64,000 nucleotides of DNA from Daphnia pulex (lineage: Eukaryota > Arthropoda > Branchiopoda > Diplostraca > Daphniidae): NCBI RefSeq assembly GCF_021134715.1, contig NC_060019.1, positions 620,001 through 684,000 of the forward strand. The letters run 5' to 3'. Position numbers and translations under genes: made by a program. How positions within the stretch are numbered: the first letter of the stretch is position 1; each line of letters starts with the position of its first letter. The notes beneath the pieces are model-generated. The model did not search any database. It was not told the DNA's origin and saw nothing but the letters and a program-made list of their open reading frames with translations. This document shows, piece after piece, positions 4,820-55,950 of this stretch.

Positions 4820-6319
4820 CTATAATTGTCGTCCACGGTCCATCCTATGTTGAATTAACAATTCAATTATTTCATTTAAATTGAAATGTCGATAATAAAT
4901 ACGTAACAAAGTTAGGACATTCGATCCGTCGTTGTTCTTGCAATTAATGTCGATTCCATGTTGAATTAAAAGTTGAATGATTTCAATTACATTTTCTTTT
5001 TGATAATAACGACATAAGAAAAAAAGAGCATTCAATCCGTCGTTGTTCTTGCAATTGACATCGATTCCGTGTTGAATTAAAAGTTGAAGTATTTCCAGTA
5101 AATTATTTTGTCCGTTGTATTTTCTGTTTGCCAAATAATGAAGGGGTGACATTCCTTCTTCGTCCGTGCAATTGAAATCCACACCTTCTTGTAGAAAATG
5201 TGTTACTTCTTCCAAACTTGGATAGCTATCACGCGAACATAGGGCGAACAACTGAGTTTCAAATTGACTCTGAAATGGAAATAAATTTAATTTGTTGTTA
5301 CCTAAACAGTAATAGTTAAAGGCTTTACTTTAATTTTTTTGAGAAATTCTGCAACTTCTGACGATGTTATTCTCTCCACGATATTTTCCCTTAGCATTTT
5401 CAGGATTAGGTCACGAGCACATTGTGATTGTATTTCTGTTTAGTTGAAGCATATTTGATTTTATTTCGTCATATTTTAAAGTCTATTTTTATTTAAATTA
5501 ACTTACTATCCAGATTAACTGGTTTATTATCAAGTATGTGGGTGTGAATTTGATGACGCAAACCGAAAAGATGACGGCCATCTAGTAGGAAGTAGCCGAA
5601 GACGAGTCCTTCTGAAAACACATCGCTTTGGATAGTTCCTCGTTTAACTGTTGATGTTGTTTCACTTTCAGACTGGCTCAATTCTTCGTCATTAAATAAG
5701 TTCAGAATTTCAGGTGCTAACCAGTCAAAGGTGCCTCTGACTCCGCTCATAGAGTAAGACCCTCGCTCATTCACTTGTTTGCACAGTCCAAAATCAGCCC
5801 ATTTCAATAAAACGTTTCCTTTTCTGGGATCTTGCCAGATGAGGACGTTTTCGGGTTTGAGGTCGCGATGCACCAGTCCCATTTTGTGAATATACTCCAA
5901 TCCGACAGCTAATTGATAAAGGGCCGTTAGCGATGGGGGCATCGGCCCACGGTATTTATTCTTGTGCCCGTCTTTCAAAAATAATTTTTCCAAAGAAGCG
6001 TTGCACAATTCAAGATAATAATATCTGTAAATAGTCAATCAAAGGCATTCAGTTATTTTTTTCATACTTGTTTTGTTGGTTTTTGTTTTTTACCTGAAAT
6101 TTGCGTCACTCTCGGCGTGAAACAATTTGATTACATTCGAGTGATCAAGTCCCTGCAACGCTTCTTCTCCTTGTGTGTTGCTTGCCATATGAATTAACTG
6201 AATTCGCTTGACGGCCACCGATTTTTCACGCCATATACCTTTACAATTTTACATACGATTCCATAACGTCCTTCACCCAACTTGTTGTCGAGATCCAAAT
6301 TCCTCACTTCGTTCGACAT
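4820..6319 (-). pseudogene. kinase-ankyrin gene A1, damaged
   Basis: Predicted exons are 6094-6319 (kinase N-lobe), 5507-6024 (C-lobe), 5329-5435 (end of kinase) and 4820-5269 (ankyrin). The C-lobe keeps HRDLKPENVLIW, WADFGLCK and FDWLAPEIL, so the catalytic and DFG motifs are intact. The glycine-loop exon differs from its twin B1 by an extra 8 bp near 6,245-6,255 (within CCTTTACAATTTTACATACG), which shifts the frame inside that exon. The ankyrin array has only about three units, against nine in B1, and ends in an unrelated tail. The closest known kinase relative is the IRE1/RNase L type (LCNASLEKLF start of the C-lobe, compact activation segment, SDVFSEGLVFGY). It is probably a pseudogene. 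The open C-lobe plus ankyrin part could still be expressed from an internal start. Confidence 0.7.
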
Positions 6320-7080
6320 TTCCAATCAATCCGATATTTCTGAAATGTATTTCTTGTTAAGTTTTCTTAAATTGAATGAGTGCCCTTCGATTTTCACCAG
6401 CTAAATCAGTTGACTGAGTAATTCGTATCAAGGAATTTAGGTATGAGCGTTGTTATTCAGATCACAGCTTGTATCATTTTGTATTGGTTACCTTGGCAAT
6501 TTTATCAAGGTAAACAGTTGATAAAACTTGTCAAGATAAATCCTCAGTTCACTTTTACTTATGTCACTTTCAGGAGATCGGAGGGATATTTTAATGGAGT
6601 CAATAACATTTTTTGTTATTTTATTATTTACGTACGCTTTTCTTTTAATACTTAAAATCTGATTAAAAATTTCGGAAATACATGTAATTTGATGGGGTAT
6701 TCAGGATTGGGTTCCGAACATCGTTGATTTTTCAAGTATTCCCATGACTAGTGGAAAGAGCGATGCATTATGCATTGCCGAAGCAACTAGAAAAGTACCA
6801 ATTTTCATTAAGAGATGAGTTAAGACCTGTAGAAAGAGTCAGATCAATTTCCTCCAATCAGAGGAGAACATTGAATCTGCAGTAGATCAATATGGTTTTG
6901 GTGTTACAGTAGATTCATTTTGGTTTCAGTTTTATTATTCACTTTGCATAACAAAAAATTGAATCAAGAGAAATCAGCTCCTCTATTATGTCAACGGTTC
7001 ATAGAGTGGGTAAGGCTAACTAACATGACAAATGATTTTGGCGGGATTTTATAAAGTCAGAACAGTAAAAAAAAAACATG
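6320..7080. other. spacer between kinase-ankyrin genes A1 and A2
   Basis: This AT-rich spacer aligns with 18,715-19,510 in copy B and contains no supported gene. It must hold the promoter of A1 and the 3' end of A2, both minus strand. No clear TATA box was identified. Confidence 0.6.
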
Positions 7081-10049
7081 TTAAAAACGATATCCTTCTG
7101 TCATACTTTGGATCCAATATTTTTTTGTGCTTTCCGTAGTGCTTCTCTCTACAATACATTGCAGAATTTCATGTCGTTTTTCTTTTGTCTTATTATATGC
7201 GATGTAAGTTAACGTATATGGCGTCACATCGCAACAACATTCAATATGAAGTCGAATAATATAATTTAAATATTGTTTTTGATCACTTTGGCACAAGGAA
7301 TGCATGCATTTTTTAAAGTCGCTGTAATCTTTCTCTCTATAAGGCCACAAGCCATAAAATTTTTGATTTCTTTCCCAGTCTTCTTTACCATCGACTTCCA
7401 TTTCATGCTGAAGAAAAATTTGAACAATGTCAACTAAATTTTCTTTGTGGTAGAATTGACACAAGATATCAAGGGCTCTTCTTCCAAAGCGACCATTGCA
7501 GTTGACGTCGATTCCGTGTCGAATCAAAAGTCGTATTAAGTCAATTAATTTGTCTTCTTGATAAAATGTGCATAAATAATGCAAGGCATTATTCTTCCAA
7601 AGGTCTTGGTAATTCACTTCTATTCCTTTTTCAATTAGAAGTTGAACTATTTCAACAATATTTTCTTCTTTATAATATTGAAACAAATGGCAAAGAGCAT
7701 TGCGTCCCATACGGTCCTTCCAATTCACATCGATTCCATGCCTCACGAAAAGTATAATTATTTCAATTAAATTTTCTTTTTTATAGTAACGAAAAACAGT
7801 CTGAAGAGCATTAGATCCGTCCGAGTCTTTGCAATCGACTTCGAGACCGTGTTCTAACAAAAGTTGTAGAATTTCAATTAAATTGTCATCTTCGTGATTT
7901 TTATACAACTCAAGGAGAACATGATCTGGTATACTATGGGCCTTGGTGTCAAATCCGTGTTCAAATAAAAGTCGAATTATTTCAATTAAATTTTTTTTTT
8001 TATAATAAAAAATCAAAATGGAAATGGCATCCCATCCATTGTTGTCTTTGCAATTGACGTCGATTCCGTGATGAATTAAAAGTTGAATGATTTCAATTAA
8101 ATTTTCCTTTTGATAATAACTACATAAGAAGAGAAGAGCATTCAATCCGTCGTCCTTGCAATTGATGTCGAGTCCATGTTGAATTAAAAGTTGAATGATT
8201 TCAAATAAATTTTCATTTTGATAGCGACGACATAAGAAAAGAAGAGCATTCCATCCAACGTTGGTTTTGCAATTGACGTCGATTCCATTTTGAATTAGAA
8301 TTTTAATTATTTCCTTTATATTTTCATTTTGATAATAGTGAGACAATAAAGTTAGAATATTGTATCCGTTGCTGTCCTTGCAATTGACATCGATTCCGTG
8401 TTGAATTAAAAGTTGAATGATTTCTATTAAATTCTCTTTTAGATAAATTCCACCCAAAGATGTAAGAGCATTGTCTCCAGAGTTATTCTTGTAATTGATG
8501 TCGATTCCATGTTGAATTAAAAGTTGAATGATTTCAATTAAATTTTCGTTTTGATAATTTACGCACAGTAAAGTGAGAGCATTTTCTCCGTAATTATTTT
8601 TGCAATTGACATCGATTCCATGTTGAATTAAAAGTTGAATGATTTCAACCAAATTTTCTTTTTGATAATGACGACATAAGAAAAGAAGAGCATTCCATCC
8701 GTCCTTGTTTTTGAAATTGACGTCGATTCCATGTTGAATTAAAAGTTGAATTATTTCAATCAAATTTTCGTTTTGATACATATGACAGAATAAATGTAAG
8801 ATATTTAATCTAACACCGAAGAAAAATAGGCTAAGGTTGACGCCATTCTTAAGGAAGTGTCGCACTATTTCAACCAAATTGTTATTGCCATCCTCTTTTT
8901 TATTCAGATTGATTAGGGGAGTCCATCCTATAAAATCGAAAAAAAAGACGCCGACACCCATTTCTAGATAGGATTCAACATCCTTCAAAGTAGGATAGGT
9001 ATCTTTGCGATCTCTGCGACCAACCTCCCAAAACTGCGTTTGTTACATAAATTTAACAAAATTTGAATTTGTATTATTTTGTATTTATTACTTTTTTTAA
9101 AACTAAAGTTTTTACCTTTTCAGAGAGTAGTTCAACGACATCTGACGAATTGATTCGATCTTCCGGCTTCCCTTCTAACATTCTCTTGATTATGTCAAAC
9201 GCGCACAGTTGACATTCTGTTCCAGTCAAACGAAACATAAATTTTAATGAAATTTCCGCATGATTTATGTGATAAACAAGGTACTTACTATCTAGATTAA
9301 TTGGTTTGTTTTCAAGTATGTTGGAGTAAATTTTATCACGAGAACCGAACGGATGAAGACCATTTGAAAGATAATATCCAAAGACAAGACCTTCCGAAAA
9401 CACATCGCTCTTGATTGTTCCCCTTTGCGTTATTTCTTCTTCGGTGACGAGTAGTTTCAATAATTCTGGTGCTAACCATTCCCTTGTCCCCTTGATTCCA
9501 CTCATAGAACAAGTCCCTCTTTCATTCACTTGTTTACTCAGTCCGAAATCAGCCCATTTCATCAGAGTTTCTTTAATTAGAACGTTTTCCGGCTTGAGAT
9601 CACGGTGGATCAGTCCCTGTTTGTGAATGTATTCCAGGCCAGTAGCTAATTGGTAAATGTTAAGTAATTGTATGGGCATTGGGTGAGCGTTTAAGAATTT
9701 TTCTGGGTCCTTGTCTTTAGATAACAGTTGTTCCAACGAGCCATCACACAATTCAAGACAGTAATATCTAGAAATAGTTGTTTTATTAGTTATTACCTCA
9801 TCACAGCTCATTAATCTGCTTAGATGACGTATCTTACCTGAAATTCTCGTCACTCTCGGCGTGAAAAAATTTTACGACATTCGGATGATCGAGTTTTTTC
9901 ATGGCTTCTTCTTCTTGGTTGCAGCACTGATCTAGTTGAATTCGCTTGATGGCCACTGTTTTTCCATCCCAGGATCCCTTGCAAACGATACCATAACGCC
10001 CCTCCCCTAATTTGTTTTTGAGATCGAAAATCTTCAACATTTTCGACAT
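7081..10049 (-). CDS. IRE1-type kinase fused to long ankyrin array (A2)
   Basis: Four predicted exons: 9838-10049, 9289-9767, 9116-9216 and 7081-9033, with GT-AG introns of about 65-80 bp. The start is the ATG giving MSKMLKIFDLKNKLGEG, since the upstream in-frame GTG is less likely. Kinase motifs are complete: GEGRYGIVCKG loop, VAIK lysine, HRDLKPENVLI, WADFGLSK and TREWLAPELL. After the final kinase helix (RMLEGKPEDRINSSDVVELL) the gene goes straight into about 14 ankyrin units of 37 residues (NALxLLCxxYQxENLIEII...LLIQHGIDVNCK). IRE1 and RNase L carry a KEN ribonuclease domain after the kinase, and none is visible here. RNase L has ankyrins before the kinase, so the order is reversed. No signal peptide or membrane segment is seen, so it is probably cytoplasmic. 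The function is unknown. A sensing or scaffolding role of the repeats is inference. Confidence 0.8.
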
Positions 10050-11060
10050 ACTGACTTTCGGAAACAGCACAAATAATTAACTAATCCTTTCACACAAAAA
10101 AATATGTGGTCTTTGTTGTAAGGGATGCAACAGCCTTTTGATTTATTTGCCCTTGACGACTAATCAAAGTGATAAACCTAGTCCTGGATGGCAATTTTAT
10201 CTTGTTGGGTTTGTTGTCTTGGCAATGTTATCAGGGAATTATAGCTGATAAAAAATCTTGAAAGAAATTTTTTTTTGTCCCCTAGTCATTGGAAAGTTAG
10301 AAATTTCTAGCGACGACTTTCGAACAAAAATTTTAAATGACGGGAGTGAAAATGAGGCATGCGAATGTAATGGTTTTCATCGCCCAGCCTTATAACCAAT
10401 CTTGGAAAGAAAAAAGGAAAGGGAAATTTAAAATTCTGACTCACGACAGTGGTTGAAGTTGAAAAATATAATAATTCCATACTCTTTTTAGACTTTAAAC
10501 TCATCTAACTGGTAAAGGAGAAAAAAAAAACAATGTTAAATGGAATTTTTTTTGGGGGGAGTAATAAAGGAGAGCGGATCAAGCGACTAAAGCCATGAGT
10601 GCCGTCCACCCTTGCTGTACCTGCCGGCCCACGCCCGGTCTTTGCAGCACATCGACACAGGCATGGGCGGCGCTAATAAATGCTGGGGGTGTAGATGAGA
10701 TTTTGCTGGCGTAATATTAATACTTATAGGCCCTTATACATAGTGCTCATCAGTACGGTGGATGTAGATAGCAAGGATCGGGCACGGATGCTTATATTGC
10801 CTTTAACGGTATTCCAGATTTACCGATAATAACAACTTATACATGTATTCTTTTTCTTTCTTTTTTTTAATGGTATGCATGAATATTGTCAACGTCAACA
10901 AGGGGTAATATTTATTTTGATTATGTCATTGTACATTTTCGTTGTAGTAGAATAGGCCTGCCATTCGATTATCAACACTTTTACGATTGGTCAGCGGTAT
11001 AACTATAAACATTCTTATTGATTAACACAGAATTTTACCTGAAATCTCGCTCAAACTTGA
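10050..11060. other. spacer with a GC-rich exon-like island (about 10,570-10,690)
   Basis: The spacer between A2 and the secreted-protein gene aligns with 22,759-23,486 in copy B, except for roughly 120 bp at about 10,570-10,690. That island is conspicuously GC-rich. On the minus strand it reads as a terminal exon: a polypyrimidine tract and acceptor ACACCCCCAG, then about 33 open codons including SAAHACVDVLQRPGVG and GWTALMALVA, then a stop. The parent gene was not recognised. No other gene is seen. Confidence 0.4.
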
Positions 11061-11832
11061 TCAAGGTCTGAAGTGCTGGAAACTCAAACTCTGTTTTAAG
11101 AAATCGTCGAACTTGGGAAAATCGTTATCGTCATTAACAAATTCTGCGCCGACATTATTATGAGATGATTCCGGCTCTTTTTTTAAATCATTGTAGAATA
11201 TCGATGGGTATTGAGGCCGTGATGATGGGTCGATGGTGGAATCCATGTTCTCCGGAGGAAAGTAAGGCGAAGGTGAAAAAGTCGGTGATGGATAAGATGG
11301 CGTTGTGTAACCGTAAATCAGTGATTCGGTGTAGTAAGCTGCAGGAGAGACGGAAGTAGGGCGGTCGTAACTGGGAGTCTTCTTAGGAACGTAAAGTGGA
11401 ACATAAGGCTTGAATGCTGATGCATGGTTGTAAATAATCGGAGCGAAATAGCTGTGAGCTGGAATAGGGAAATGTGGCTTAGATTTATGATTTGTTTTGT
11501 GATTTGATTTCGGTTGATTTGGCTCGTTGGGCCATCTCATTGGCCAGAATTCACTGTAGCGCCCATTGGGGTTAAGTTCGTCAAACTCCTCTGTCTGACC
11601 ACTTCCAAAGGCGCCCATCGAGTTTCTGTTTTTATCTTTTTGAATCTTCGCGCCGTATTCTTTCGCCAAATTGTTGCCATCGAGCCAGACAACTGCCACA
11701 GCTAATTGAGTCAGTAGGACAGGAACTAAAATCTGTGTAAAATTTGCATTAACCAAACAGTTATTACGTATGTCAGTCATTTTTTTCTTTGAATGATTTT
11801 TGCTAACTCACTTTGAATATGGCGCGTTTCAT
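11061..11832 (-). CDS. secreted Pro/Tyr/Ser-rich protein, copy A
   Basis: Two exons, 11812-11832 (ATGAAACGCGCCATATTCAAA) and 11061-11732, joined by an intron of about 79 bp. The spliced start, MKRAIFKILVPVLLTQLAVA, is a good signal peptide. Starting at the ATG inside the intron (11,780) would give a poorer one. The mature protein of about 210 residues is polar at first, then rich in proline, tyrosine and serine (for example YTTPSYPSPTFSPSPYFPP), with an acidic tail ending in FQHFRP. No cysteine pattern or chitin-binding motif is seen. Composition fits an extracellular matrix or cuticle-associated protein, but no family was recognised. The paralogue in copy B is about 90% identical, with in-frame indels, suggesting both are functional. 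Confidence 0.75.
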
Positions 11833-12281
11833 ATTTGCAAAAACTTATTGATTTACGTTTGTATCTTGTTATCCGGTTTTCTTTGAAGACACTGCGTTGA
11901 AGTTGAGCTCGAAAACTCGAATGATGGATGAATGTACGACTACCACGGAGTTATATCCATTGGAGAAAGGCTCCACTTTTTTCTCAAACCGTATAAGATG
12001 CCTGTCCTCAGCATTTTCCCTTGTCGCATTGTCCCTCGTTGCTTTCCCGATCACCGTCGTCTGTGGTTTTCCTTTCTGGCCCCTTCTTCTGCTGATCAGC
12101 TCTTCTTGCTGTCATTCCCAACTTTCAATGGTTATTTTGAGCTGACGACTGCGGCTCCCCGGCTCGTAACTTTTATTTTTAAGCTGATCGATCATCATAA
12201 TTTTTCTATGAACGAAAAGAAACCACAGAAAAAAAGAGAATAATTCGCCAGAGATCAAAAATCTTCTGGCAATTGGTTACG

Positions 12282-13029
12282 TTTTATTATATTCTCTAGG
12301 CGATACACATGTAATAACGGACCCCGGCCGCGAACCTCATCTCTCACGTATTATCGGAATCAGCCGAGCGTGAATCACATACCCTCCATCCGTACGCGCA
12401 CTCACACAACAGCGTGGGTCTATGCAAAAAAACAACAAAATCTGATGAGGTCACTAACCCGACTATCAGACAGTTTTTTTTAAATTTTATTGATTTCTTC
12501 AAATACGTTACTTTCCCTTTTTGCGCGCGAATTGCGCGATTGCGAATTGCGAATTGCAAATTGCAAATTGCAATTTGCGAATTGAATTGCAATTGCGAAT
12601 TGCGCGCAAAAGAAATTTCCGCCGATGGATCTTATTGTCTCTCGCCAAGAAAAGCGCAGCAACGCCCTTTTTAAATTTGTTTTGTCGGCGAATGCAAATC
12701 AGAACCGGTTCCTGCACAGAGCCAAGGGCTTGGCCAGTCATTGAGCTCATCGTCCGTTTTTAATTTTCTTTGCATCTGCTCGTTTTCAATTTTGCGCTGC
12801 TTTTTATTTGTGTGAGGAGGTGGGCGGGAATGGCATTGTTGTACCAGTGTTGCGACTTCCTCAACAACGGCCGTGGCCAAGATTTGTTAGGTTAATTATT
12901 GGCGGCAGTTGCGACTTGTGGGCTGCAGCAGAGCCGCTCACGGTGTCGGCCAATGTAGCGCTTGCCGTTCACCACCACCAGACTTGGCGCTGCGCAGCAC
13001 TAGATGGGCAATCGAAGATCGTATAAGCC
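12282..13029. other. region upstream of the sulfotransferase gene
   Basis: Unique DNA between copy A and the sulfotransferase gene. It contains the AATTGC heptamer block described separately. Overlapping open frames in all directions here are by-products of that repeat and show no domain. The 5' UTR and promoter of the sulfotransferase should lie within the right half. No clear TATA box was found. Confidence 0.5.
12527..12612. repeat. AATTGC/GCAATT heptamer block, partly palindromic
   Basis: About 85 bp is made almost entirely of variants of GCGAATT and GCAAATT on both strands. It begins with GCGCGCGAATTGCG and ends with GCGAATTGCGCGC, so the ends are nearly inverted copies and the block could fold on itself. 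It sits about 420 bp upstream of the sulfotransferase start. Confidence 0.8.
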
Positions 13030-14117
13030 ATGGCGTCGATGGCGTCTCTCGTCAGAAAGTACCTAGTTGGCCTCGTTTTCCTCATCTTTCTGCTCTTCCA
13101 ACAAGCCATCATCCGCATGGCCACTTTAGATGGACACCAGCAGCAGCAACCAACAGGTAGCAAATAGCCAACACAAATAGTCTTGAATTCCTTCATTCAT
13201 TTTGCGTTTGGTGTTCAATAGGAGTTGCGGTGGTGGTGGCGGCAGTGCCCACGTCGACGCCAGCCACGACCACAACAACCGAGTCAACATCCAGCACCAA
13301 GCGGATTTTGATCGTGTCGACGTGGCGATCGGGATCGTCGTTCCTGGGCCAACTCATCGCCAGTTCGCCCGGCGTTTTCTATTCCTTCGAGCTCATGGCC
13401 AAACACGTCCCGTTCCTGTTCCGCTGCCACTTTCCCGACGACTACATCCGGTTCATCAACGGGACCAATCACGTGAAACTCAACCGGCGGATCTGGAAAG
13501 AGTGCCGATATCACGAGCTCCCGTCCTTGTGCCACCAACCGCAAATGCTGGCCCAGCTCTGCGCTTCTTTTCCCGTCAATTTGATCAAAGTCGTCGAGTT
13601 GTCGGTCAAAGATCTCGTCGCCTTCACCACCAATTCGTCATCGGCTCTTGCCGGCCATCCCGTGACGGACCGTTGGAAAATCGTCTACCTGGTCCGCGAT
13701 CCTCGCGGCACCATGGCCTCCAGGGCCAAACTAAAATGGTGGATGGCCAATCGGAATTGCCAGGAACCGGCCCGACTCTGTGGCCGCATCGAAGAAGATC
13801 TCGACTTGGAAAAGCATTTCACGGCCGGCCGGGATTACCTTCTGCTGAAATTCGAAGATTTGGCCGTCAACGTCCGATCGGAGACGGAGAAACTCTTCCG
13901 CTTCCTGCAACTGCCCGTCACGGATCTCACGACGGCCTTTCTCGACACTCACACCCATCAGTCGAATAACCAAACGGCCGAAAAGGATCCGTTTTCCACC
14001 GTCCGGCAATCGGACACCGTGGCGTTCGGCTGGAAAACGAAATTGTCGAAGAAAAAAATCGCCAAAATAACCAATTCTTGCGCGCCATTTTTGAAAAAGA
14101 TGGGCGTCATCGTTTAG
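13030..14117 (+). CDS. carbohydrate (Gal/GlcNAc-6-O type) sulfotransferase
   Basis: Two exons, 13030-13156 and 13222-14117, with a 65-bp intron and matching phase, encode about 340 residues. The N-terminus (SLVRKYLVGLVFLIFLLFQQ) is a type II signal anchor, as expected for a Golgi enzyme. A Thr/Pro stem follows. The 5'-phosphosulfate loop is STWRSGSSFLGQL, and the 3'-phosphate-binding motif is VYLVRDPRGTMASR. Family members (CHST1-7 group) use PAPS to sulfate sugar 6-hydroxyls on glycans or glycosaminoglycans. Length and motif spacing fit. Coding GC content is far above that of its neighbours. The stop codon lies immediately before the left edge of duplication copy B. The exact acceptor sugar cannot be told from sequence. 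Confidence 0.9.
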
Positions 14118-16538
14118 CAAGTGTCTGCCGTTGAAAATCGCCTCGCCTATAATAGTAGCTTAATAGTTATATTCTTCAACAAAGTTTTGGCTGCAGCTGC
14201 TGCCTTTTGGTTTTTTTCTCTCATTTGCATCAGCCAACTGTGGCCGATTATTGGCCGGTTGCCAACTCGAATCATTTTCTATACACCAACTTGTTCAAAA
14301 TTTTGGTTTGAGCTCTTTTGTGTTATTTAATCCAATAGGATTCCGTGTCCATGTCGCATTGAAAATCACCACAGACGCATCTTCTTCTTCTTCTTTATAA
14401 GGACATTTCACATTTTGTTTTTTCTTTTTCCTGGATGTGGGGGGGGGGATAGTATCGACCTTAAAACCCCCCGTTGTTTTTTAAAAAAATATTCTTCTTC
14501 ACATTTTTGGGAACATATGGGAAAAGTCGTTTGAATATTTTGTCCTTGTTATTGTAAGAGCTCGGGATTGGGTTGAAATTTCAAAAGTACCGAGAAATTT
14601 CTTTTGTGCTCAGCTCACAGCTCAAACAACACATTGTTCGCATGTAGACTCATTAATCATCGTGAATAATAATTTAACGTAATATAATAAGACAACTTTT
14701 TGGCTTTTGTGTGTGTGTCGGGGTGTTGGACGGGTTTACTATCAACCCAGTCGATCCTAGATGTATCCTGATAGATGTTGGTGATTTGCACTGCTGCTCA
14801 ATAGAGAAAGGGGTCTTCAAGTCCCGAGGGATTTATTCACGGATAAGATAGTACATTACGTACCGGATCTGGTTGGGATCCCTCCTCCTCCTACCCACTC
14901 AAAAAGAGTGATGGTGATGGGTCCCCTCCACCCCTCCTCTTGAAAATTGTGTATAATAACTTTTTGTTGCGCGCTAAAGGTCACAAATATCGACTCGCCG
15001 GGTTTTTCGGTTGTTGTTTTGTTGCCGTTTCTGGCTTTTTTTATGAGGACTTGCTGATTATCTGGCCGTTTTATGACAACGCGTGGCCTTAGTTAATAAT
15101 AAGTAGTAGACAGTCAAATAAATGAATATTTATTAATAAATTAAATACGCGCATTCTAACCATTCTGGCATTCTTTAACCGCCGCCCAATTCCTGTTTGT
15201 TTTTTATCGGATCTGTTGGTTTGAATTCTCGACAGATGGCGTTCGATGTGGTTCTCTATTTACGACCGCCAGATGGCTATCAAGTACAGACAGCAAAACA
15301 TCTGAACGAAAATTCAATTCAATCTGTGAGACGAGACTGGATATTTGTTTAATTAATTAAAAAATCACGATTGTCAAGTCTTTCGTAATGTCTAATTCAA
15401 TGAGAAATGTCAAGTAGGCCAATGCAACGCTACTGGACAGTTTGATCTTTGATAAAGTAAGCATGTCTATATCTGGTTTGGCGAGTCGTCCTAAAAGCCC
15501 ACCATGCTGCAAAAACGTGAACAAATAAGCAATGACAAATTCATTTGTCAGAATGGTAACTAAAATGTTAGACATCAAATTTCTTTTTCAGATTTTAAAT
15601 CTCAAAATTTGCAAACAGGATCTGCTAGTGCAGCTAATCACCGTTAACATCAGACAACATCAGACATGAGGATCTGGGGTGAAGACCTGGGTTGAAATGA
15701 AAGGTATTCTCTAGTAGTTGTGGAATATAACAGAAACGTGAAATAACCTAAAGTGTGTTTCTATTCTATGGCTTAATAAGGCACTGCGTGCTTCAGAATC
15801 TCATCAGTTCTTGTCTGTTCATCGAGGTAGCAGAAAGTGTGTACCGAAAATACCATTGTTGAAGGATTCTTCATGGTGTGAACTACATAGCCATCAAATA
15901 AGCATCACATCAATGTTGGGTTTGAGGTAAGTCATCTTTCATTTCAAGTTTCTTGATGGAGTCTATCCCCTGTCGCTTTTAGAAGTCATGTGTGTTTGTT
16001 TTTCGTAAACTGTTTGGATAGTTTTATGATATGGACACAAGAGATAAGGAAACACTGTTATCTACACCGTAATAACCCAATGACCGAACTGATGGAACGA
16101 CTATCAGCTTATGAGCTCAAGATCAGTTAATCGTCGACCTGAAATTCTTATAGCCTTTCGTTTCTTTCAGCATGGGCCGATCGCCGGTACTGTCGATGCC
16201 TACAGAATTTTTCGTTTGATTTAGGCAATCGATTTTTTTTACAGTCCGATTAGTATACCTTTTTTTTTTATTTTTTGGCAAACGTATTGGTGAAAAAGGA
16301 TGCTACCGTACGTTACCTCTTTGACTCTTTTTAATTTTTAAGGTGAAAGAAGAGATTTTTGAAGTGCTAAAACGTATTTTGACGTGGACAACAGGGAACT
16401 GAATTGCGATGGCTTGCGTCTTCTTTCTCGACTAACGTAACGATATTTTTATGAAAAATAACTGAAACTTTCTGTTGACGACGATGTTGAAAAGCTCTTT
16501 ATTTGTTTTGGTCGACTATCGTTTTTCCTTTAGATAAA
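14118..16538. other. non-coding leader of copy B
   Basis: Aligns with 266-827 and 2,391-4,200 of copy A. Indels between the copies are frequent and not multiples of three, and none of the open frames is conserved. No gene is seen. Confidence 0.6.
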
Positions 16539-18714
16539 TTAGAACACCGACTGTGTTTCTGGATCCACATTGCACCCACTTTGCATCATCAGTCGAATAA
16601 TTTCAATTAAATTTGCCTTTTGATAAAATTTGCTTAATAAAGTGATGGCATTCCATCCACCACTGGTACTGCAATTGACTTCTATTCCGTGTCGAATCAA
16701 GAGTCGAATTAATTCAATCAAATTTTCTTTTTCATAAAATTCGCATAATAAAGTAAGAGCATTCGATCCGCTCTTAGTCGTGGAATTGACTTCGATTCCG
16801 TTTTCAATTAATAGTTGAATTATTTCCATTAAATTTTCTTCGCTATAATTCTGACACAATAAAGTGAGAGCGTTCCATCCGTTGTCATTCTTGCAATTGA
16901 CGTCGATTCCGTGTTGAATCAAAAGTTGAATTATTTCAATCAAATTTTTTGTTTGGGAATATCGACACAATAAAAGGAGAGCATTCCATCCGCCGCTGGT
17001 CTTCCAATTGACATCTATTCCTTGTTGAATTAAAAGTTGAATTAATTCAATCAAATTTTCTTTTTGATAAAATTCGCATAGTAACGTTAGGGGGTTCCAT
17101 CCGCAGCTGGTTCTACAATCGATTTCTATTTCGTGTTGAATCAAAAGTCGAATTATTTCGATCAAATTTTCTTTTTGATAAAATTCGCATAGTAAAGTTA
17201 GGGCATTTGATCCGTTGTTGGTCTTGCAATTGACTTCGACTCCGTGTTGAATTAAAAATTGGATTATTTCGATCAAATTTTCTTTTTCATAAAAAAGACA
17301 TAGGAAATGAAGAGAATTCCATCCTCCACTGGTCTTGCAATTCATTTCAATTCCGTGTTGAATCAAAATTCTAATTATTTCTATTACATTTTCTTTTTGG
17401 TAATGTCGACACAAGAAAAGAAGAACATTCCATCCACCGGTGGTCGTGGAATTCATTTTGATTCCATGTTGAATCAAAAGTTGAAGTATTTCCACTAAAT
17501 TATTGTGTTCATTGTTTTTTTCCTTCGCCAGATAAAGAAGGGGTGACATTCCTTCTTTATTTGTGCAATTGATATCCATACCTTCCTGTAGAAAATGTGT
17601 TACTTCTTCCAAACTTGGATAGGTATCACGCGAACAAAGGGCGAATAACTGGGTTTCAAGTTGACTCTAAAAAGAATATGAATAACTTTTTTGTTGTTTT
17701 CTAAATAGTAATAGTTAAAGGGTTTACTTTAACTTGTTTGAGGAGTTCTGCAACTTCTGATGATGTTATTCTATCCGCGATATTTTCCTTTAGCATTCTC
17801 AGGATCAGTTCACGTGCACATTTCGATTGTATTTCTGTTTAGTTGAAGAAATTTGATTTTATTTCGTCATATTTTGAAGTCTATTTTGATTTAAATTAAC
17901 TTACTATCCAGATTAACTGGTTTATTTTCAAGTATGTGAGTTTGAATTTGATGACGTAAACCGAAAGGGTGACGGCCATCTAACAGAAAGTAGCCGAAGA
18001 CGAGGCCTTCTGAAAACACATCACTTTGGATAGTTCCTCGTTTAACTGTTGTTGATGTTGTTTCACTTTCAGACTGGCTGTTTTCTTCGTCATTAAATAA
18101 GTTCAGAATTTCAGGTGCTAGCCAGTCAAAGGTACCTCTGACTCCGCTCATAGAGTAAGACCCTCGCTCATTCACCGGTTTACACAGTCCAAAATCAGCC
18201 CATTTCAATAAAACGTCTCCCTTTTTGGGATCTTCCCAGATGAGGACGTTTTCAGGTTTGAGGTCGCGATGCAACAGTCCCATTTTGTGAATATACTCCA
18301 GTCCGACAGCTAATTGATAAAGGACCGTTAGCGATGGGGGCATCGGCCCACGGTATTTATTCTTGTGCCCGTCTTTCAAAAATAATTTTTCCAAAGAAGC
18401 GTTGCACAATTCAAGATAATAATATCTGTAAATAGTCAATTAAAGGCATTTTTCACTCATTTTTTCATACTTGTTTTGTTGGTTTTTGTTTTTTACCTGA
18501 AATTTGCGTCACTCTCGGCGTGAAACAATTTGATGACATTCGAGTGATCAAGTCCCTGCAACGCTTCTTCTCCTTGTGTGTTGCTTGCGATATGAATTAA
18601 TTGAATTCGCTTGACGGCCACCGATTTTTCACACCATATACCTTTACATACGATTCCATAACGTCCTTCACCCAACTTGTTGTCGAGATCCAAATTCCTC
18701 ACTTCGTTCGACAT
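16539..18714 (-). CDS. IRE1-type kinase fused to ankyrin array (B1)
   Basis: Four predicted exons: 18497-18714, 17905-18425, 17728-17834 and 16539-17666. The start is ATG at 18,714 (MSNEVRNLDLDNKLGEGRYG). Kinase motifs are complete: GEGRYGIVCKG, VAVKRIQL, HRDLKPENVLIW, WADFGLCKP and FDWLAPEIL. The last kinase exon encodes a helix (RITSS-like, variant RIADNI in this copy) that is followed by LFALCSRDTYPSLEEVTHFL and about nine 37-residue ankyrin units. The array ends with a degenerate unit and DPETQSVF. This is the intact twin of the damaged A1. A predicted product of about 650 residues has no membrane segment. Function is unknown, and an intracellular kinase with a ligand-binding repeat tail is inferred. 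Confidence 0.8.
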
Positions 18715-19510
18715 TTCCAATCAATGCGATATTTCTGAAATGTATTTCTTGTTAAGGTTTCGTAAATTGAATGTGTGCTCTTCGATTTTCACCAGCTAAG
18801 TTAGTTGACTGAGTAATTCGTATCAAGGAATATTGGTGTGAGTGTTGTCATGCAGATCACATAGCTTTATCATTTTGTATTGGTTACCTTGGCGATTTTA
18901 TCAAGGTAAAACAGCTGATGAAATTTGTCAAGATAAATCCTCAGTTCACTTTTGCTTAGCCTATGTCACTTGCAAGAGATCAGAAAGATATTTAATGGAG
19001 CCATTAAAATTTCTTGTTATTTTATTATTTACAAATAGGCCTATGTACGCTTTCATTGTTTTAATTTAAAAAATGATAAAATATTTCCTAAAAACAGGTA
19101 GTTTGATGGGGTAGCTGAATTAAGGATTGGGTTCCGAACATCGTTGGTTTTGCCAGTATTCCCGTGACTAGTTTAAATAGCGAAAATGCATTGCCGAAGC
19201 AACTAGCAAACAAGAAAAGTCCCAATTTTCGTTAAGTGGTGGGTCATAATCTGTAGAAAGGGTCAGATGTCAGATCAATTTCCACCAATCAGAGCAGAAC
19301 ATCGAGGGAGTAGATCAATATGGTTTTGGTTTTACAGTAGATACATTTTGGTTTCTGTTTTATTATTCACTTTGCATAACAAAAAATTTGAAAAAATTAC
19401 AACAAGAGAAATCAGTTCCTCTATTATATTAACGGTTCATAAAGTGGATAAGGCTATCTAACATGCATTGAAGTGATACAGAGGATTTTGGCGGGATTTA
19501 GTTAAAATAT
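18715..19510. other. spacer between B1 and B2
   Basis: AT-rich spacer matching 6,320-7,080. No gene, RNA or clear promoter element was identified. Confidence 0.6.
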
Positions 19511-22500
19511 TTAAAAAAAACCTTGTGTCATATGTTGGATCCATTCTTTTTCGATGTGTACCTTACCGCAACACCTTGCGATGTATTTCACAATTTCATG
19601 TCGTCTTTCTTTTCTCATTTCATATGAGATGCAAGTTAGCGTATATGGCGTCACAACGCAACAATTTTCCATTAGAAGTCGAATTATTTCATTTAAATTT
19701 TCTTTTTGATCACTTTGGCACAAGGAATGCATGTTTTTTTTAAAGTCGCTGTAATCTTTCTCTCTATAAGACCACAAGCCATAATATTTCTTATTTCTTT
19801 CCCAGTCGTCTTCACCATCAACTTCCATTTCATACTGAAGAAAAATTTGAACAATATCCACTAAATTGTCTTTGGTGTAGAATTGACACAAGATATCAAG
19901 GGCTCTTCTTCCAAAGCGACCATTGCAGTTGACATCGATTCCTTGTCGAATCAAAAGTCGTATTAAGTCAATTAAATTGTCTTCTTGATAAAATGTGCAT
20001 AAATAATGTAAAACATTATTCATGTAACCGTCTTCGCAATTCACTTCTATTCCATATTGAATTAATAGTTGGGTTATTTCAATGATATTTTCTTCTTTAT
20101 AATATCGAAACAAATAGTAAAGGGCATTGTGTCCACGATGGTTCTTGTAGTTGACATCGATTCCGTGTTCAATCAAAAGTCGAGTAATTTCAATTAAATT
20201 TTCATTTTGATAATAACTATACAAAAGGTGAAGGACATCACCCCTTTTGTTTTTCTTGCAATTGACTTCGATTCCGTGTCGAATTAAAAGTCGAATTATT
20301 TCAATTAGATTTTCTTTTTGATATCTTACCCCAAATAACAAAAGCAGAGCATTCTTGTGGTGTTCCGTTTCGCAGTTGACTTCGATTCCATATTTAATCA
20401 AAAGCCGAAAAATTTCAATTAAACTTTCATTTTGATAATAATGAGACAAACAGTGAAGTGCATTCCACCCGCTGAAGTTTTTGCAATTGACATCGATTCC
20501 GTGTTGAATCAAAAGTTGAATTATATCAATTAAATTTTCGTTTTGATAATTTCGGCACAATAACGTAAGTGCGTTTTCTTCGTTATTATCCTTGCAATCA
20601 ACTTCAATTCCGCTTTCGATCAGAAATAGAATTATTTCAGTTAAATTTTCATTACCATAATTACGAGTCAAACAGTGAAGGGCATTTGATCCGTCGTCGC
20701 ACCTGTCATTGACATCGATTCCTTGCTGAATCAAATATAGAATAATTTCAATTACATTTTCATGTTGATAAAAAGAAGACAAATAGTGAAGTGCATTCCA
20801 CCCGCTTGAGTCTTTGCAATTGACGTCGATTCCATGGTGAATCAAATACTGAATAATTTCAATTAAATTCTGCTTTTGTTTACGTTGACACAACAACATC
20901 ATGAGAGCATTCAGTCCAGAGCTATTCTTAAAATTGATATCAATTCCATGTTGAATCAAAATTTCAATTATTTCAATGAAATTCTCTGCTTCCTCATTGT
21001 CACACAAATAAATGAGAGCATTATCTCCGCTGTCATCCGTGCAAGTTACACTGATTCCGTGGTGAATAAGTAGTCGAATGATTGCAATTGAATTTTCCCG
21101 TTTGTGACTATCGGCAATTACAGCGTTAGTTTCGCTGTGATTCTTGCAATTGAAAACATTTTTGTTTTGACACAATGAAATGAGAGCATTCGATCCGCCC
21201 TTTGTCGTGGAATTGATCTCAATTCCGTGATGAATCAAAAGTTGAATTATATCAATTAAGTTTTCGTTTTGATAATTGCTGCACAATAAAGTAAGTGCGT
21301 TATCTCCGTTGCTGTCTTTGCAATTGACGTCGATTCCATGTTGAATTAAAAGTTGAATGATTTCAACCAAATTTTCTTTTTGATAATGAAAACACAATAT
21401 AGTTAGAGCATTATCTTCGAAGGTCTCCTTGCAATTGATTTCCATTTCGTGTTCGATCAGAAGTCGAATTATGTCTATTAAATTGTCTTTTTTATAATAG
21501 CGACAAAATAAATGCAAGACATTTGATCTGGCGAAGAACAAAGTTTGACCAAGGTTAACTCCATTCTTTATGAAGTGCCGCACTATTTCAACCAAATTGT
21601 TATCGCCAACATCCTTTTTTGCTTTTGCCAGATATAAAAGGGGAGTCCATCCTTCAGGATTGACAAAGTTGACATCCACACTTTTTTCCAGAAAGTATTT
21701 GATATCCATTAAACTAGGATAAGTATCACTCGAACATAAGTCCATAAACTGTTTTTGTGTCACAAGCTTTACAACATATGATATATTTAGTTATTATTTA
21801 TTTAATTTTTTTTTTCACTTTAATTTTTACCTTTTCGTAAATTAGTTCAGCGACATCTGACGAATTGATTCGATCTTCCGGCTTTCCTTCTAACATTCTC
21901 TTGATTATGTCATACGCACATGGTTGACATTCTGTTCCAGTCAAACGAAACATAAGTTTTAATGAAATTTCCGCATGATTTATTTGATAAACAAAGTAGT
22001 ACTTACTATCTAGATTAATTAGTTTGTTTTTAAGTATGTTAGAGTGAATTTTGTGACGAGAACCGAACGGATGAAGACCATTTGAAAGATAATATCCAAA
22101 GACAAGGCCTTCTGCAAACATATCGCTTTGGATTGTTCCCCTTTGCGTTATTTCTTCTTCGGTGACGAGTTGTTTCAATAATTCTGGTGCTAACCATTCC
22201 CTTGTCCCCTTGATTTCACTCATAGAACAAGTCCCTCTTTCATTCACTTGTTTACTCAGTCCGAAATCAGCCCATTTCATCAGAGTTTCTTTAATTAGAA
22301 CGTTTTCCGGCTTGAGATCACGGTGGATCAGTCCCTGTTTGTGAATGTATTCCAGGCCAGTAGCTAATTGGAGAATATTACACAGTTGTTTTAACATTGG
22401 GTGGGCCTGCAAGAATTTTTCTGGGTCCTTGTCTTTAGATAAAACTTGGTCCAACGAACCATCACACAATTCAAGACAGTAATATCTAGAAATAGTTGTT

Positions 22501-22758
22501 TTATTACCTCATCAGCTCATTGATCTGCTTAGATGACGTATTTTACCTGAAATTCTCGTCACTCTCGGCGTGAAAAAATTTTACGACATTGGGATGATCG
22601 AGTTTTTTCATTGCTTCTTCTTCTTGGTTGCAGCACTGATGCAGTTGAATTCGCTTGACGGCCACCGTTTTTCCATCCCAGTCTCCTTTGCAAACGATAC
22701 CATAACGACCCTCCCCTAATTTTTTTTTTAGATCGAAAATCTGCGACATTTTCGACAT
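19511..22758 (-). CDS. IRE1-type kinase fused to very long ankyrin array (B2)
   Basis: Four predicted exons: 22547-22758, 22007-22485, 21831-21931 and 19511-21748. The start is MSKMSQIFDLKKKLGEG. Kinase motifs are GEGRYGIVCKGDW, VAVKRIQL, HRDLKPENVLI, WADFGLSK and TREWLAPELL. About 18 ankyrin units follow, four more than in its twin A2, and one unit is shortened (around FNCKNHSETNA). The C-terminal 150 residues after the array are shared with A2 (GLWSYREKDYSDFKKNMHSL; GLWPYREKDYSDFKKCMHSL in A2) and look like a cap domain. No KEN ribonuclease domain is visible. Predicted length is about 1,010 residues. The surplus units match internal units at DNA level, consistent with growth by unequal crossing-over in 111-bp steps. 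Confidence 0.8.
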
Positions 22759-23486: not shown

Positions 23487-24246
23487 TCAAGGTCTGAAGT
23501 GCTGAAAACTCAAACTCTGTTTTAAGAAATCGTCAAACTTGGGAAAATCGCTATCGTCATTAACAAATTCTGTGCCTACATTATTCTGAGTTGATTCCGG
23601 CTCTTTTTTTAAATCATTGTAGAATATCGACGGGTATTGAGGTCGTGATGATGGGTCGATGGTGGAATCCATGTTCTCCGGAGGAAAGTAAGGCGAAGGT
23701 GAAAAAGTCGGTGATGGATAAGATGGCGTTGTGTAACCGTAAATCAGTGATTCGGTGTAGTAAGCTGTAGGAGAGACGGAAGTAGGGCGGTCGTAACTGG
23801 GAGTCTTCTTAGGAACGTAAAGTGAAACATAAGGTTTGAATGCTGATGCATGGTTGTAAATAATCGGAGCGAAATAGCTGTGAGCTGGAATAGGGAAATG
23901 TGGCTTAGATTTGTGATTTGCTGTTTTGTGATTTGATTTCGGTTGATTTGGCTTGTTGGGCCATCTCATTGGCCAAAATTCACTGTAGCGCCCGTTGGGG
24001 TTAAGTTCGTCAAACTCCTCTGTCTGACCACTTCCAAATTCACTCATCGAGTTTCTGTTTTTATCTTTTTGAATCTTCGCGCCGTATTCTTTCGCCAAAT
24101 TGTCGCCATCGAGCCCGACGACTGCCACAGCTAATTGAGTCAGTAGGACAGGAACTAAAGCCTGTGTAAAATTCAAATTAACCAAACGGTTATTTCAGTC
24201 AGTTCAATGAATTTCACTAACTTACTTTGAATGTGGCGCGTTTCAT
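23487..24246 (-). CDS. secreted Pro/Tyr/Ser-rich protein, copy B
   Basis: Two exons, 24226-24246 and 23487-24161. Splicing gives MKRATFKALVPVLLTQLAVA, a signal peptide like that of the copy-A gene. The mature part keeps the Pro/Tyr-rich centre and the FQHFRP end. Differences from copy A are mostly substitutions plus a one-codon insertion (HKTANHKSK versus HKTNHKSK), which preserve the frame and suggest selection on the protein. An unrecognised family, probably extracellular. Confidence 0.75.
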
Positions 24247-34552: not shown

Positions 34553-35850
34553 CTACTGAGCTGAAATAGCTTTAGCTTTGCGACTGAGTGCAGTACCCAC
34601 GGCTGAAAAGTTCTTGTCCCTGCGAAAATAAATAACTTTAAAACTGTCGGAAGCAAAATTTGTCTGATTAAAAATTTCACCTCAAATCAGCGTAAAGCTC
34701 TTCGGCCGAGTTTAGAACAACAGATTTAACAGAGCTACCATCAGAGCGAGGTGACTGGCCCGCATTTGATGAGGCTTGAAAATTTTCTCCTGGAAGCTTG
34801 ACTGTATCTAAATAACAATGAAACCACAAAATGCAAGTAAAATAATTGTTTTACTCAGAAGCTAACAATACTTTCTTACTATGTTTTATTCCATGGAATT
34901 CGTCGATAAGACCCTCATAGGTCAACTGAGTGACAACAGGAGTTATCAAATCTACAGTCCTATCAATGATCATGAGAGTGTCGAACAACGGAGACATGGG
35001 GGGATCACAGTCTACCCCAATATCACGTCGCATTCGAGTCATCAATTCGAATACGTTACGGGCATGGCGCCCCTTACCCACAACGTTGGGGAAAATGCCA
35101 TATAAACTTTGGAGGGACATTAACCCATGAGCAATTTGGTGTAAGGAGATGATTTCATTGTCAACATATAAATCCTGAGAATAAATTTGAAGAAATTGAT
35201 GACAAGCAATCCCTTTCAAAGTTTGGCTCATAAATAAATACCTTGAAAACATTATCGAGTTCCATTGAAATGACATCACTATCTAGTGGGAAAAAATCAG
35301 CAGGCAGTTCATCAATAGAAGTAAGAGTTCCATACACTCCTTTGTCCTAAATGAAGTAATAATTTTGTCAACAATTTCTTCTTCGCTGATTTAAGTAACT
35401 TTAACCAACCTTGAGCCGCTGTTCACATACTGCACTTCGTCGGGAGACAAAAATTAACTGATATTCCTTACTAGCAGAATGTCCTTGGCTTTCTTCGCTG
35501 AAATGTAAATTAACTTATTGTTGACTATTTAAAGTTAAAATATGTAGATTATTCATACCTGTGCAAGTTATCGGCAATACAATCCATCAGCTCAACTTCA
35601 GGTCTTGTGATGAACAGCATATTTTTAACAGATATGGAAGGCAAGCGCCCAGGTTTTAACTGAAACATTTTTACAACATCTAGTTCCTTAAGAAAACTGT
35701 ATTCTGCCACCAAACCAATGGGGCCAGTGAGTTGTTCATCCCAAAATATTGCCTAGCATAATTGATGAATTTACGTACATTTCTTAAATGGAATAGCACA
35801 CACCAAAATACCTTTGTTCCACTGAACTTCTCTAAAAGAGAAACAATATC
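34553..35850 (-). pseudogene. Vps33A: VPS33A (SM protein of HOPS/CORVET), truncated at both ends
   Basis: Seven splice-consistent exons: 35812-35850, 35559-35752, 35410-35497, 35242-35346, 34880-35174, 34681-34807 and 34553-34619. Together they encode about 304 residues co-linear with the N-terminal half of VPS33[75 protein letters not shown] and LNSAEELYADLRDKNFSAVG. VPS33A is the Sec1/Munc18-like subunit that guides SNARE pairing in lysosome and late endosome fusion. The normal length is about 600 residues. Here the frame stops after SRKAKAISAQ and the C-terminal half is missing. No convincing first exon was found; a weak candidate starts at 36,090. The insert interrupts the right palindrome arm. 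It is probably a duplicated fragment, but the retained frame is intact, so a truncated product is possible. Confidence 0.75.
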
Positions 35851-55400: not shown

Positions 55401-55950
55401 AAAGTGGCACTCGTCACCTCGAGGATGTTCCTCCACAAATTCTTTGTCCTGCTCTCCGTTGCTCCTCACCACCGTCTTCATGTTAGGCGCCATGAGAAAG
55501 TTATTCGGACGCACTTTGAGGTTGTAGTTCCTATCAAATGAATCGACTGAAAACTCGTTCAACATTAAATTGTTATTAACTAATTGTTTCATACTTTCCG
55601 TTGGCAGCGAACGAATAATGGGCGTGATTTTCACGAGGGCCACTCCGCTTTGTTTTGGGACTGGCGTTTCGTTGAAGAGGATCTTCGGGCACGAAACTTC
55701 GATGGCGGCGGATGTAGACGACCTCGTACTCGTCGACTTGCGACGAATTGTCCACGCCAAATGTCCGTCCCAACTCGTCGACATTCATCAACGTGTGCAA
55801 AGTGCGCAACAACTAATACAGAAAAAGTAAGTGAAATTGTCATTCCCTCAGTTTATAGTCGAAAATAGATGGTCGATTTACCTCCGAGGGTTGTGGAAGC
55901 ACTCCAGCTGAGGCCAAACCGATAGCAGACAAGAACAGAATCCACTTCAT
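52413..55950 (-). CDS. ADAMTS-type secreted metalloprotease (M12B)
   Basis: Fifteen predicted exons: 55882-55950, 55595-55812, 55344-55546, 55103-55280, 54680-54916, 54354-54612, 54148-54289, 54029-54075, 53871-53952, 53637-53799, 53466-53561, 53283-53403, 52975-53202, 52615-52904 and 52413-52553 (about 820 residues; one edge may be off by a base or two). Order: signal peptide (MKWILFLSAIGLASAGV), prodomain (HGYMIDGGKPMEIKPIPSRL), catalytic domain starting KVIELGVFVDSAA, zinc motif split by an intron (VMAHEIGHK then LGMSHDS), Met-turn GFIMSPSRG, disintegrin-like region (QCRILLRDKAA), a thrombospondin type-1 repeat (GGWSDWKNKPCGSGC), then a Cys-rich region (SPRFELNSLPE, FPDGTWCGNDG). The C-terminal tail is short and acidic and there is no membrane segment. 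All zinc ligands and the Glu are present, so it should be an active extracellular matrix protease. Basic residues before the catalytic domain (EKRKSNK) may serve for propeptide removal. Confidence 0.85.

What the first reader, a model, noticed from the sequence alone, without database searches (positions are those of the whole stretch)
4820..22758. Kinase-then-ankyrin family related to IRE1/RNase L but without a visible ribonuclease domain
Four paralogues start with an IRE1-type kinase with complete catalytic motifs and then, in place of a KEN ribonuclease domain, carry 3 to 18 ankyrin units. RNase L has the opposite order (ankyrin, kinase, KEN). This suggests an arthropod lineage-specific intracellular sensor or signalling family built from the same parts as the unfolded-protein and 2-5A pathways. 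The sensing role is inference.
Basis: partly seen in the sequence, partly recalled or inferred. Interest (0 to 1): 0.8.

Follow-up and report, generated by a model that had tools for sequence, protein, structure and literature searches.

The report
Ribonuclease-less IRE1-type kinases with ankyrins
A crustacean-like genome carries a large, tandemly duplicated family of kinases related to the stress sensor IRE1 that lack its RNA-cutting and membrane parts and carry ankyrin repeats instead, which looks like an unstudied set of internal sensor proteins.

Summary
Four minus-strand paralogues, two tandem pairs, each carry a 3-exon IRE1-type kinase spliced in phase to an ankyrin exon. One (4820-6319) has an 8-base insertion that shifts the frame in its first exon, so it is not catalytically complete. 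With a family profile the 16 best PDB sequences are all IRE1 (187-158 bits; next 121). A tree joins the family to yeast, human and own-genome IRE1 against ten other kinases (98/90). No KEN domain was found in the four genes; the genome search found two KEN genes elsewhere, and only IRE1 appears to keep the catalytic His. No membrane segment is seen.

Genome-wide there are 84 kinase-exon places at >=100 bits and 116 at >=60 (at least three of the weaker ones are other kinases), mostly on contigs C3 and C11. 35 of 116 are followed by ankyrins on the same strand at a near-constant gap, none on the other strand. Other relatives end in an alpha-kinase (4 places) or a WD40 propeller, or are kinase-pseudokinase-ankyrin. 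Best reading: soluble, ankyrin-regulated signalling kinases, perhaps immune-type. Sensing, expression and lineage restriction are untested; a 2-5A link is not supported. None of my 10 literature searches returned a description of this family.

The parts
22547..22758 (-). Gene A exon 1: start codon, glycine loop, VAVK lysine, alpha-C; ends in phase 2
22007..22485 (-). Gene A exon 2: kinase C-lobe, HRD, DFG, activation loop, APE
   Evidence: the open frame 21801-22508 that holds exons 2 and 3 has IRE1 as its 16 best PDB matches
21831..21931 (-). Gene A exon 3: kinase alpha-H to alpha-I
19511..21748 (-). Gene A exon 4: ankyrin array, 745 aa, no KEN found
18497..18714 (-). Gene B exon 1: kinase N-lobe
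17905..18425 (-). Gene B exon 2: kinase C-lobe
17728..17834 (-). Gene B exon 3: kinase alpha-H to alpha-I
16539..17666 (-). Gene B exon 4: ankyrin array, 375 aa
9838..10049 (-). Gene C exon 1: kinase N-lobe (tandem sister of A)
9289..9767 (-). Gene C exon 2: kinase C-lobe
9116..9216 (-). Gene C exon 3: kinase alpha-H to alpha-I
7081..9033 (-). Gene C exon 4: ankyrin array, 650 aa
6094..6319 (-). Gene D exon 1: kinase N-lobe with an 8-nt insertion relative to B, frameshifted (likely broken)
5507..6024 (-). Gene D exon 2: kinase C-lobe, open
5329..5435 (-). Gene D exon 3: kinase alpha-H to alpha-I
4820..5269 (-). Gene D exon 4: short ankyrin array (strict motif finds 2 units)

Best explanation
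The four genes belong to a large, tandemly amplified family of soluble IRE1-type protein kinases in which the KEN ribonuclease and the luminal/membrane half of IRE1 are absent and the C-terminus is a swappable module, here an array of 37-residue ankyrin units. Shown: kinase kinship with IRE1, gene structure, no detectable KEN, catalytic motifs in most members examined, purifying selection on the kinase exons. Inferred: the ankyrin array binds a protein ligand or adaptor; binding brings kinase domains together; they trans-autophosphorylate on the IRE1-like Ser/Thr pair of the activation loop and then phosphorylate other proteins rather than cut RNA. Expansion, clustering, kinase-pseudokinase pairs and swapped C-termini suggest a recognition repertoire for stress or infection; this last step is the least certain.
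For: PDB: the open frame over exons 2-3 of A has 16 best hits, all IRE1 (3e-19 to 5.5e-17; next 1.6e-12). Family profile of 13 kinases: the 16 best are IRE1 at 187-158 bits, next 121. Tree of 68 rows: IRE1 + family against 10 other kinases of the same genome, 98/90. Intron 1 lies at the same place and phase (2) as in own IRE1 and in the KEN-bearing gene on C4. 39 kinase units with all three exons found (32 loci, none from C11; gene D among them): HRD in 32 of 39, DFG in 32 of 39, VA-x-K in 38 of 39, activation-loop S/T-x-S/T in 31 of 39. One gene, not two: 35 of 116 kinase places precede an ankyrin cluster on the same strand, 34 of 35 gaps 207-581 bases and one 9, 0 of 116 on the opposite strand. 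dN/dS of kinase exons 0.20, 0.39, 0.23 (A-C) and 0.21, 0.49 (B-D exons 2, 3); ankyrin exons 0.43 and 0.36. No stretch like a membrane helix: best 19-residue Kyte-Doolittle mean 1.1-1.6 in A, B, C. Module swapping: alpha-kinase, WD40 propeller, kinase-pseudokinase-ankyrin.
Against: No transcript, protein or ligand data. In the kinase-pseudokinase-ankyrin pair (L073/L074) the ankyrin exon is as constrained as the kinases (0.20 against 0.24 and 0.20), so fast ankyrin evolution (0.83 in the last 200 codons of A-C) is not general. Seven of 39 kinases lack canonical HRD (three HCD, three HRN, one HLD) and seven lack DFG, so not all signal by phosphorylation. 81 of 116 kinase places have no such ankyrin cluster directly downstream, and 30 of 65 ankyrin clusters have no kinase place upstream. 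15 of the 116 places are flagged with stops inside. Three weak places on C11 fell outside the IRE1 + family group. IRE1 kinases of yeast, human and this genome form their own clade (100/97), and placing own IRE1 with the family is nearly rejected (p 0.056), so descent from this species' IRE1 by recent duplication is not shown.
Confidence: 0.5

Rival explanations
1. They are regulators or decoys of IRE1: KEN-less IRE1-type kinases pair with the genome's own IRE1 (or with the C4 pseudokinase-KEN protein) through the kinase dimer face and tune or block RNA cleavage in trans.
For: Kinase kinship with IRE1; one gene with an intact-looking KEN motif in the genome, IRE1; a pseudokinase member under purifying selection.
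Against: About a hundred units to tune one gene would be odd; no membrane anchor to meet IRE1 at the ER; the C4 KEN has lost the catalytic His.
Confidence: 0.15
2. The family is amplified but serves ordinary cellular or reproductive signalling; copy number reflects tandem duplication with no tie to defence.
For: The tandem block of about 12.4 kb also copied a neighbour gene; constrained ankyrins in L073/L074.
Against: Change of C-terminal module and places on seven contigs suggest more than passive copying.
Confidence: 0.22
3. Much of the family is decaying: short-lived duplicates on the way to pseudogenes.
For: D is frameshifted; 15 of 116 places of at least 60 bits are flagged with stops inside, some of which may be intron stops.
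Against: dN/dS well under 1 in kinase exons of both window pairs and in L073/L074, though exons 2-4 of broken D still score low, so a recent break is not seen by this test; 32 of 39 units keep HRD.
Confidence: 0.08
4. Kinase and ankyrin exons are separate neighbouring genes.
For: No transcript evidence is available here.
Against: 59-82 nt introns with GT-AG and phase 0; 35 of 116 kinase places followed at a near-constant gap, 0 of 116 on the other strand.
Confidence: 0.02
5. They are members of a known kinase-then-ankyrin group (RIPK4/ANKK1 or DAPK).
For: Same domain order (recalled).
Against: The family profile ranks IRE1 37-66 bits above any other kinase; no RIPK4, ANKK1 or DAPK chain is among the 60 best shown of 922. 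None of the three was in the tree.
Confidence: 0.03

Closest known systems
IRE1 (ERN1/ERN2, yeast Ire1)
   Same: Closest kinase by sequence, profile and tree; same phase-2 intron as the genome's own IRE1; HRD, DFG and an activation-loop Ser/Thr pair in most units examined
   Different: No KEN ribonuclease found, no luminal sensor, no membrane helix; C-terminal ankyrins
RNase L
   Same: Ankyrins plus an IRE1-type kinase domain in one soluble protein (recalled)
   Different: Order reversed, no KEN, active-type kinase rather than pseudokinase (recalled for RNase L); 2-5A binding not tested
RIPK4 / ANKK1 and DAPK1 (recalled)
   Same: N-terminal kinase followed by ankyrins
   Different: Other kinase families; none is among the 60 best PDB matches shown
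NLR-type recognition repertoires (recalled)
   Same: Large clustered family, one signalling domain with varying recognition modules
   Different: No nucleotide-binding oligomerisation domain; immune role not shown

Membership tests
IRE1 | Kinase domain of the IRE1 clade | tested here: met
IRE1 | KEN ribonuclease after the kinase | tested here: not met
   none found in the four genes; two KEN genes in the genome at E<=0.001, both elsewhere
IRE1 | Luminal sensor and membrane helix | tested here: not met
   exon 1 starts at the kinase in A, B, C; no 19-residue mean above 1.6
RNase L | Ankyrin, kinase-like, KEN order | tested here: not met
   kinase then ankyrin, no KEN found
RNase L | 2-5A binding by the ankyrin array | not testable with these tools
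   needs a binding assay
RIPK4/ANKK1 | Kinase then ankyrin order | tested here: met
   (that RIPK4/ANKK1 have this order is recalled)
RIPK4/ANKK1 | RIP-type kinase | tested here: not met
   16 IRE1 sequences on top and no RIPK4 or ANKK1 among the 60 shown of 922; that the PDB holds RIPK4 is recalled, and no RIPK row was in the tree
DAPK | CaMK-type kinase with ROC-COR and death domains | tested here: not met
   IRE1-type kinase, no such Pfam domains in the eight ORFs
DAPK | Calmodulin-binding segment | not tested
   no call looked for it

The most novel reading that the evidence does not exclude
The ribonuclease half of IRE1 was dropped and its kinase became the signalling core of a clustered, NLR-like repertoire of about a hundred cytosolic receptor kinases in one crustacean lineage, with ankyrin, WD40, alpha-kinase and pseudokinase modules exchanged behind it: a new class of animal pattern- or effector-sensing kinases.
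Probability: 0.25. Interest if true: 0.85.

Novelty: new variant of a known kind. Interest (0 to 1): 0.6.

Why it matters
IRE1 is usually one or two genes that act through RNA cleavage (recalled). A genome with about a hundred IRE1-type kinase units that lack the nuclease separates the kinase function from the nuclease on an evolutionary scale, and gives a natural set for asking what the IRE1 kinase phosphorylates besides itself. If the ankyrin arrays bind pathogen or stress proteins, it is an unstudied receptor family in what may be a model crustacean.

Tried and rejected
Separate genes for kinase and ankyrins: rejected on structure and pairing. A hidden KEN in the ankyrin exon tail: Pfam at E<=10 gave none in the C-terminal pieces of A, B and C; the AlphaFold model of A's exon 4 is a run of helix pairs but poor (pLDDT 60.4, pTM 0.42, two sequences in the alignment), so it was not used for a fold search and decides nothing. 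A split RNase L made of a kinase-ankyrin sensor and the C4 pseudokinase-KEN effector: set aside because the C4 KEN reads R-D-K-A-V-Q where human IRE1 reads R-N-K-K-H-H (alignment; Rx4-6H as the active site, passages of PMC3710099). General fast evolution of ankyrins: not supported by L073/L074. A coiled-coil/KH ORF after the kinase on C8 (L036): about 1.5 kb away and not counted as a fusion. Literature: 10 searches. Seen: passages of PMC3710099, PMC4833078, PMC4528696 and PMC4244043, the protein-kinase section of PMC4244043, and a term search of PMC12102780 without occurrences; of the other listed papers only listings and starts of abstracts. None of this describes the family. My notebook entry wrongly names gene D as the one unit without VA-x-K; it is L022, which reads VTVK.
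Full report
Place and organism. The window is bases 620001-684000 of contig C3 of a 133.2-Mb genome in 13 contigs. Nothing outside this genome, prokaryotes, viral contigs and the PDB could be searched, so restriction to arthropods or to one genus is untested.

The four genes. Stop-to-stop ORFs and Pfam place Pkinase and ankyrin families in alternating ORFs on the minus strand. Splice sites give four exons each, all GT-AG, phases 2, 1, 0: N-lobe; C-lobe with HRD, DFG and APE; alpha-H/alpha-I; ankyrin array. A (22758-19511) and C (10049-7081) are one tandem pair, B (18714-16539) and D (6319-4820) the other, copied in a block with spacing of about 12.4 kb that also copied a neighbour gene. A, B and C encode 1009, 657 and 914 residues. 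D has an 8-nt insertion in exon 1 relative to B (226 against 218 nt) that shifts the frame before the catalytic lysine; it is probably broken, so the finding's 'complete catalytic motifs' holds for three of the four.

One gene or two. Introns between exon 3 and the ankyrin exon are 59-82 nt. Genome-wide I copied the places of at least 60 bits from the kinase search (116 of 154 matches; 150 of 311 candidates were scored, so counts are lower bounds) and 137 of 151 ankyrin segments (weak ones left out), merged into 65 clusters. 35 of 116 kinase places have a cluster downstream on the same strand with no kinase between; 34 of 35 gaps are 207-581 bases and one is 9; on the opposite strand there are 0 of 116 within 2.5 kb, downstream or upstream. 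All 35 are among the 68 places of at least 120 bits. Five further kinase places precede a second kinase that precedes ankyrins. 30 of 65 ankyrin clusters have no kinase place upstream. Places are exons, not genes: 84 reach 100 bits, 15 of 116 are flagged with stops inside, and three of the weak ones on C11 proved to be other kinases (below).

Which kinase. The 236-residue open frame of A that holds exons 2 and 3 and reads through the short intron between them, against all PDB chains: the 16 best are all IRE1 (3e-19 to 5.5e-17), then PDK1 at 1.6e-12. A profile of 13 family kinases: 16 IRE1 sequences at 186.9-158.2 bits, then a CDPK at 121.2; 60 of 922 matches are shown, and no RNase L, RIPK4 or DAPK is among them. 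Tree of C-lobes: 73 rows; one search drops five rows (the C4 pseudokinase and L071_624, both long branches, and L050_3038, L053 and L054, which fell outside the IRE1 + family group). In one search, 55 family rows and 3 IRE1 rows stand apart from 10 other kinases of the genome (98/90); family alone 86/89, not starred; IRE1 alone 100/97. Own IRE1 inside the family: AU p 0.056. Long branches are present among the outgroups, and no RNase L or RIPK row was available. The first intron sits between F-(K/R/Y) and the aromatic of the hinge in phase 2 in the family, in own IRE1 on C1 and in the C4 gene, which supports common descent; whether other kinases of this genome have it was not checked.

No ribonuclease. 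PF06479 finds three matches in the genome at E<=0.001, two genes: IRE1 on C1 and a gene on C4. The C4 gene is a pseudokinase (HGN for HRD) with KEN; no ankyrin or membrane ORF was seen in the 2.8 kb upstream. Its KEN reads R-D-K-A-V-Q where human IRE1 reads R-N-K-K-H-H, so it has lost the His of the Rx4-6H motif that PMC3710099 calls the active site (passages seen). Own IRE1 keeps R and H if the two ORFs are joined across their intron. None of the window genes has a detectable KEN. The first 60 residues of A, B and C have no hydrophobic stretch (19-residue means at most 0.62) and the highest anywhere is 1.56.

Activity and selection. In 39 distinct kinase units for which all three exon pieces were found (32 loci, none from C11, gene D included), 38 have VA-x-K (L022 reads VTVK), 32 have HRD, 3 HCD, 3 HRN and 1 HLD, and 32 have DFG; 31 of 39 have S/T-x-S/T at the site that aligns with the IRE1 activation-loop serines (the role of those serines is recalled). 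dN/dS, A-C: exons 0.20, 0.39, 0.23, 0.43; B-D exons 2-4: 0.21, 0.49, 0.36. The last 200 codons of A-C exon 4 give 0.83, different from the kinase exons (Fisher p 0.005 on rounded counts), but the kinase-pseudokinase-ankyrin pair L073/L074 gives 0.24, 0.20 and 0.20, no difference. Ankyrin units are 37 residues; among the 35 window units that the strict motif finds, variation is highest at the first seven positions and in the first helix (entropy up to 3.6 bits) and low in the second helix, as expected of a binding surface (recalled from ankyrin work). The last three units of A and C are colinear (80, 88, 94%) while most inner units have their closest match elsewhere, and D's second unit is closest to a unit of C (89%), so arrays seem reshuffled.

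Other C-termini. On C11 four of ten alpha-kinase matches (PF02816) lie 244-263 bases behind a family kinase place (places); in one, the alpha-H/alpha-I segment and the alpha-kinase share one open frame (alpha-kinase E 7.1e-48). In L034 a WD40 propeller follows (exons joined by hand: WD40 47.9 bits, cut-off 27). In L073/L074 kinase, pseudokinase (HCD) and ankyrin appear joined in phase by short introns, judged by eye on the sequence. Some C11 units look kinase-only (the first in L041 stops after alpha-I).

Reading. These facts fit soluble IRE1-type kinases with exchangeable C-terminal modules, acting by phosphorylation. That the modules sense ligands, and that the role is defence, is inference from expansion, clustering and module exchange. 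Ten literature searches of the held library returned no description of the family; subscription journals are mostly missing from it.

Noticed in passing
L003/L040/L072 (G000:C4, about 1982900-1984750): A soluble-looking pseudokinase-KEN gene (HGN for HRD) whose KEN has Gln where the catalytic His should be; a likely dead ribonuclease related to IRE1.
   Followed up: partly
L034, C11 1437453-1443363: IRE1-type kinase fused to an alpha-kinase, and a neighbour fused to a WD40 propeller.
   Followed up: partly
L073 and L074 (C3 1424801-1428000 and 1389101-1392300): Kinase-pseudokinase-ankyrin genes; the pseudokinase (HCD) is under purifying selection (dN/dS 0.20).
   Followed up: yes
window 11061-11807 and 23487-24194, minus strand: Tandem copies of a proline/tyrosine-rich protein gene with no Pfam match at E<=0.01, carried along in the block duplication.
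   Followed up: partly
window 13161-14117, plus strand: Sulfotransferase ORF between the two duplicated blocks (Sulfotransfer_1 E 2.1e-12).
   Followed up: no
window 34851-35282, minus strand: Exon of a Sec1-family protein (E 1.7e-19).
   Followed up: no
window 55305-55784, minus strand: Weak match to a reprolysin propeptide below the cut-off.
   Followed up: no
30 of 65 ankyrin clusters, e.g. C3 2603737-2615494 and 2694749-2705305, C12 746484-754200: Arrays of the same ankyrin type with no kinase place of at least 60 bits within 2.5 kb upstream; a diverged kinase (for example the weak match at C3 2605503-2605730) or a different N-terminal domain is possible.
   Followed up: no
C11 248877, 1751931 and 1908807 (L053, L050, L054): Kinases with HKD in place of HRD that match the family weakly but fall outside the IRE1 + family group in the tree.
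   Followed up: no
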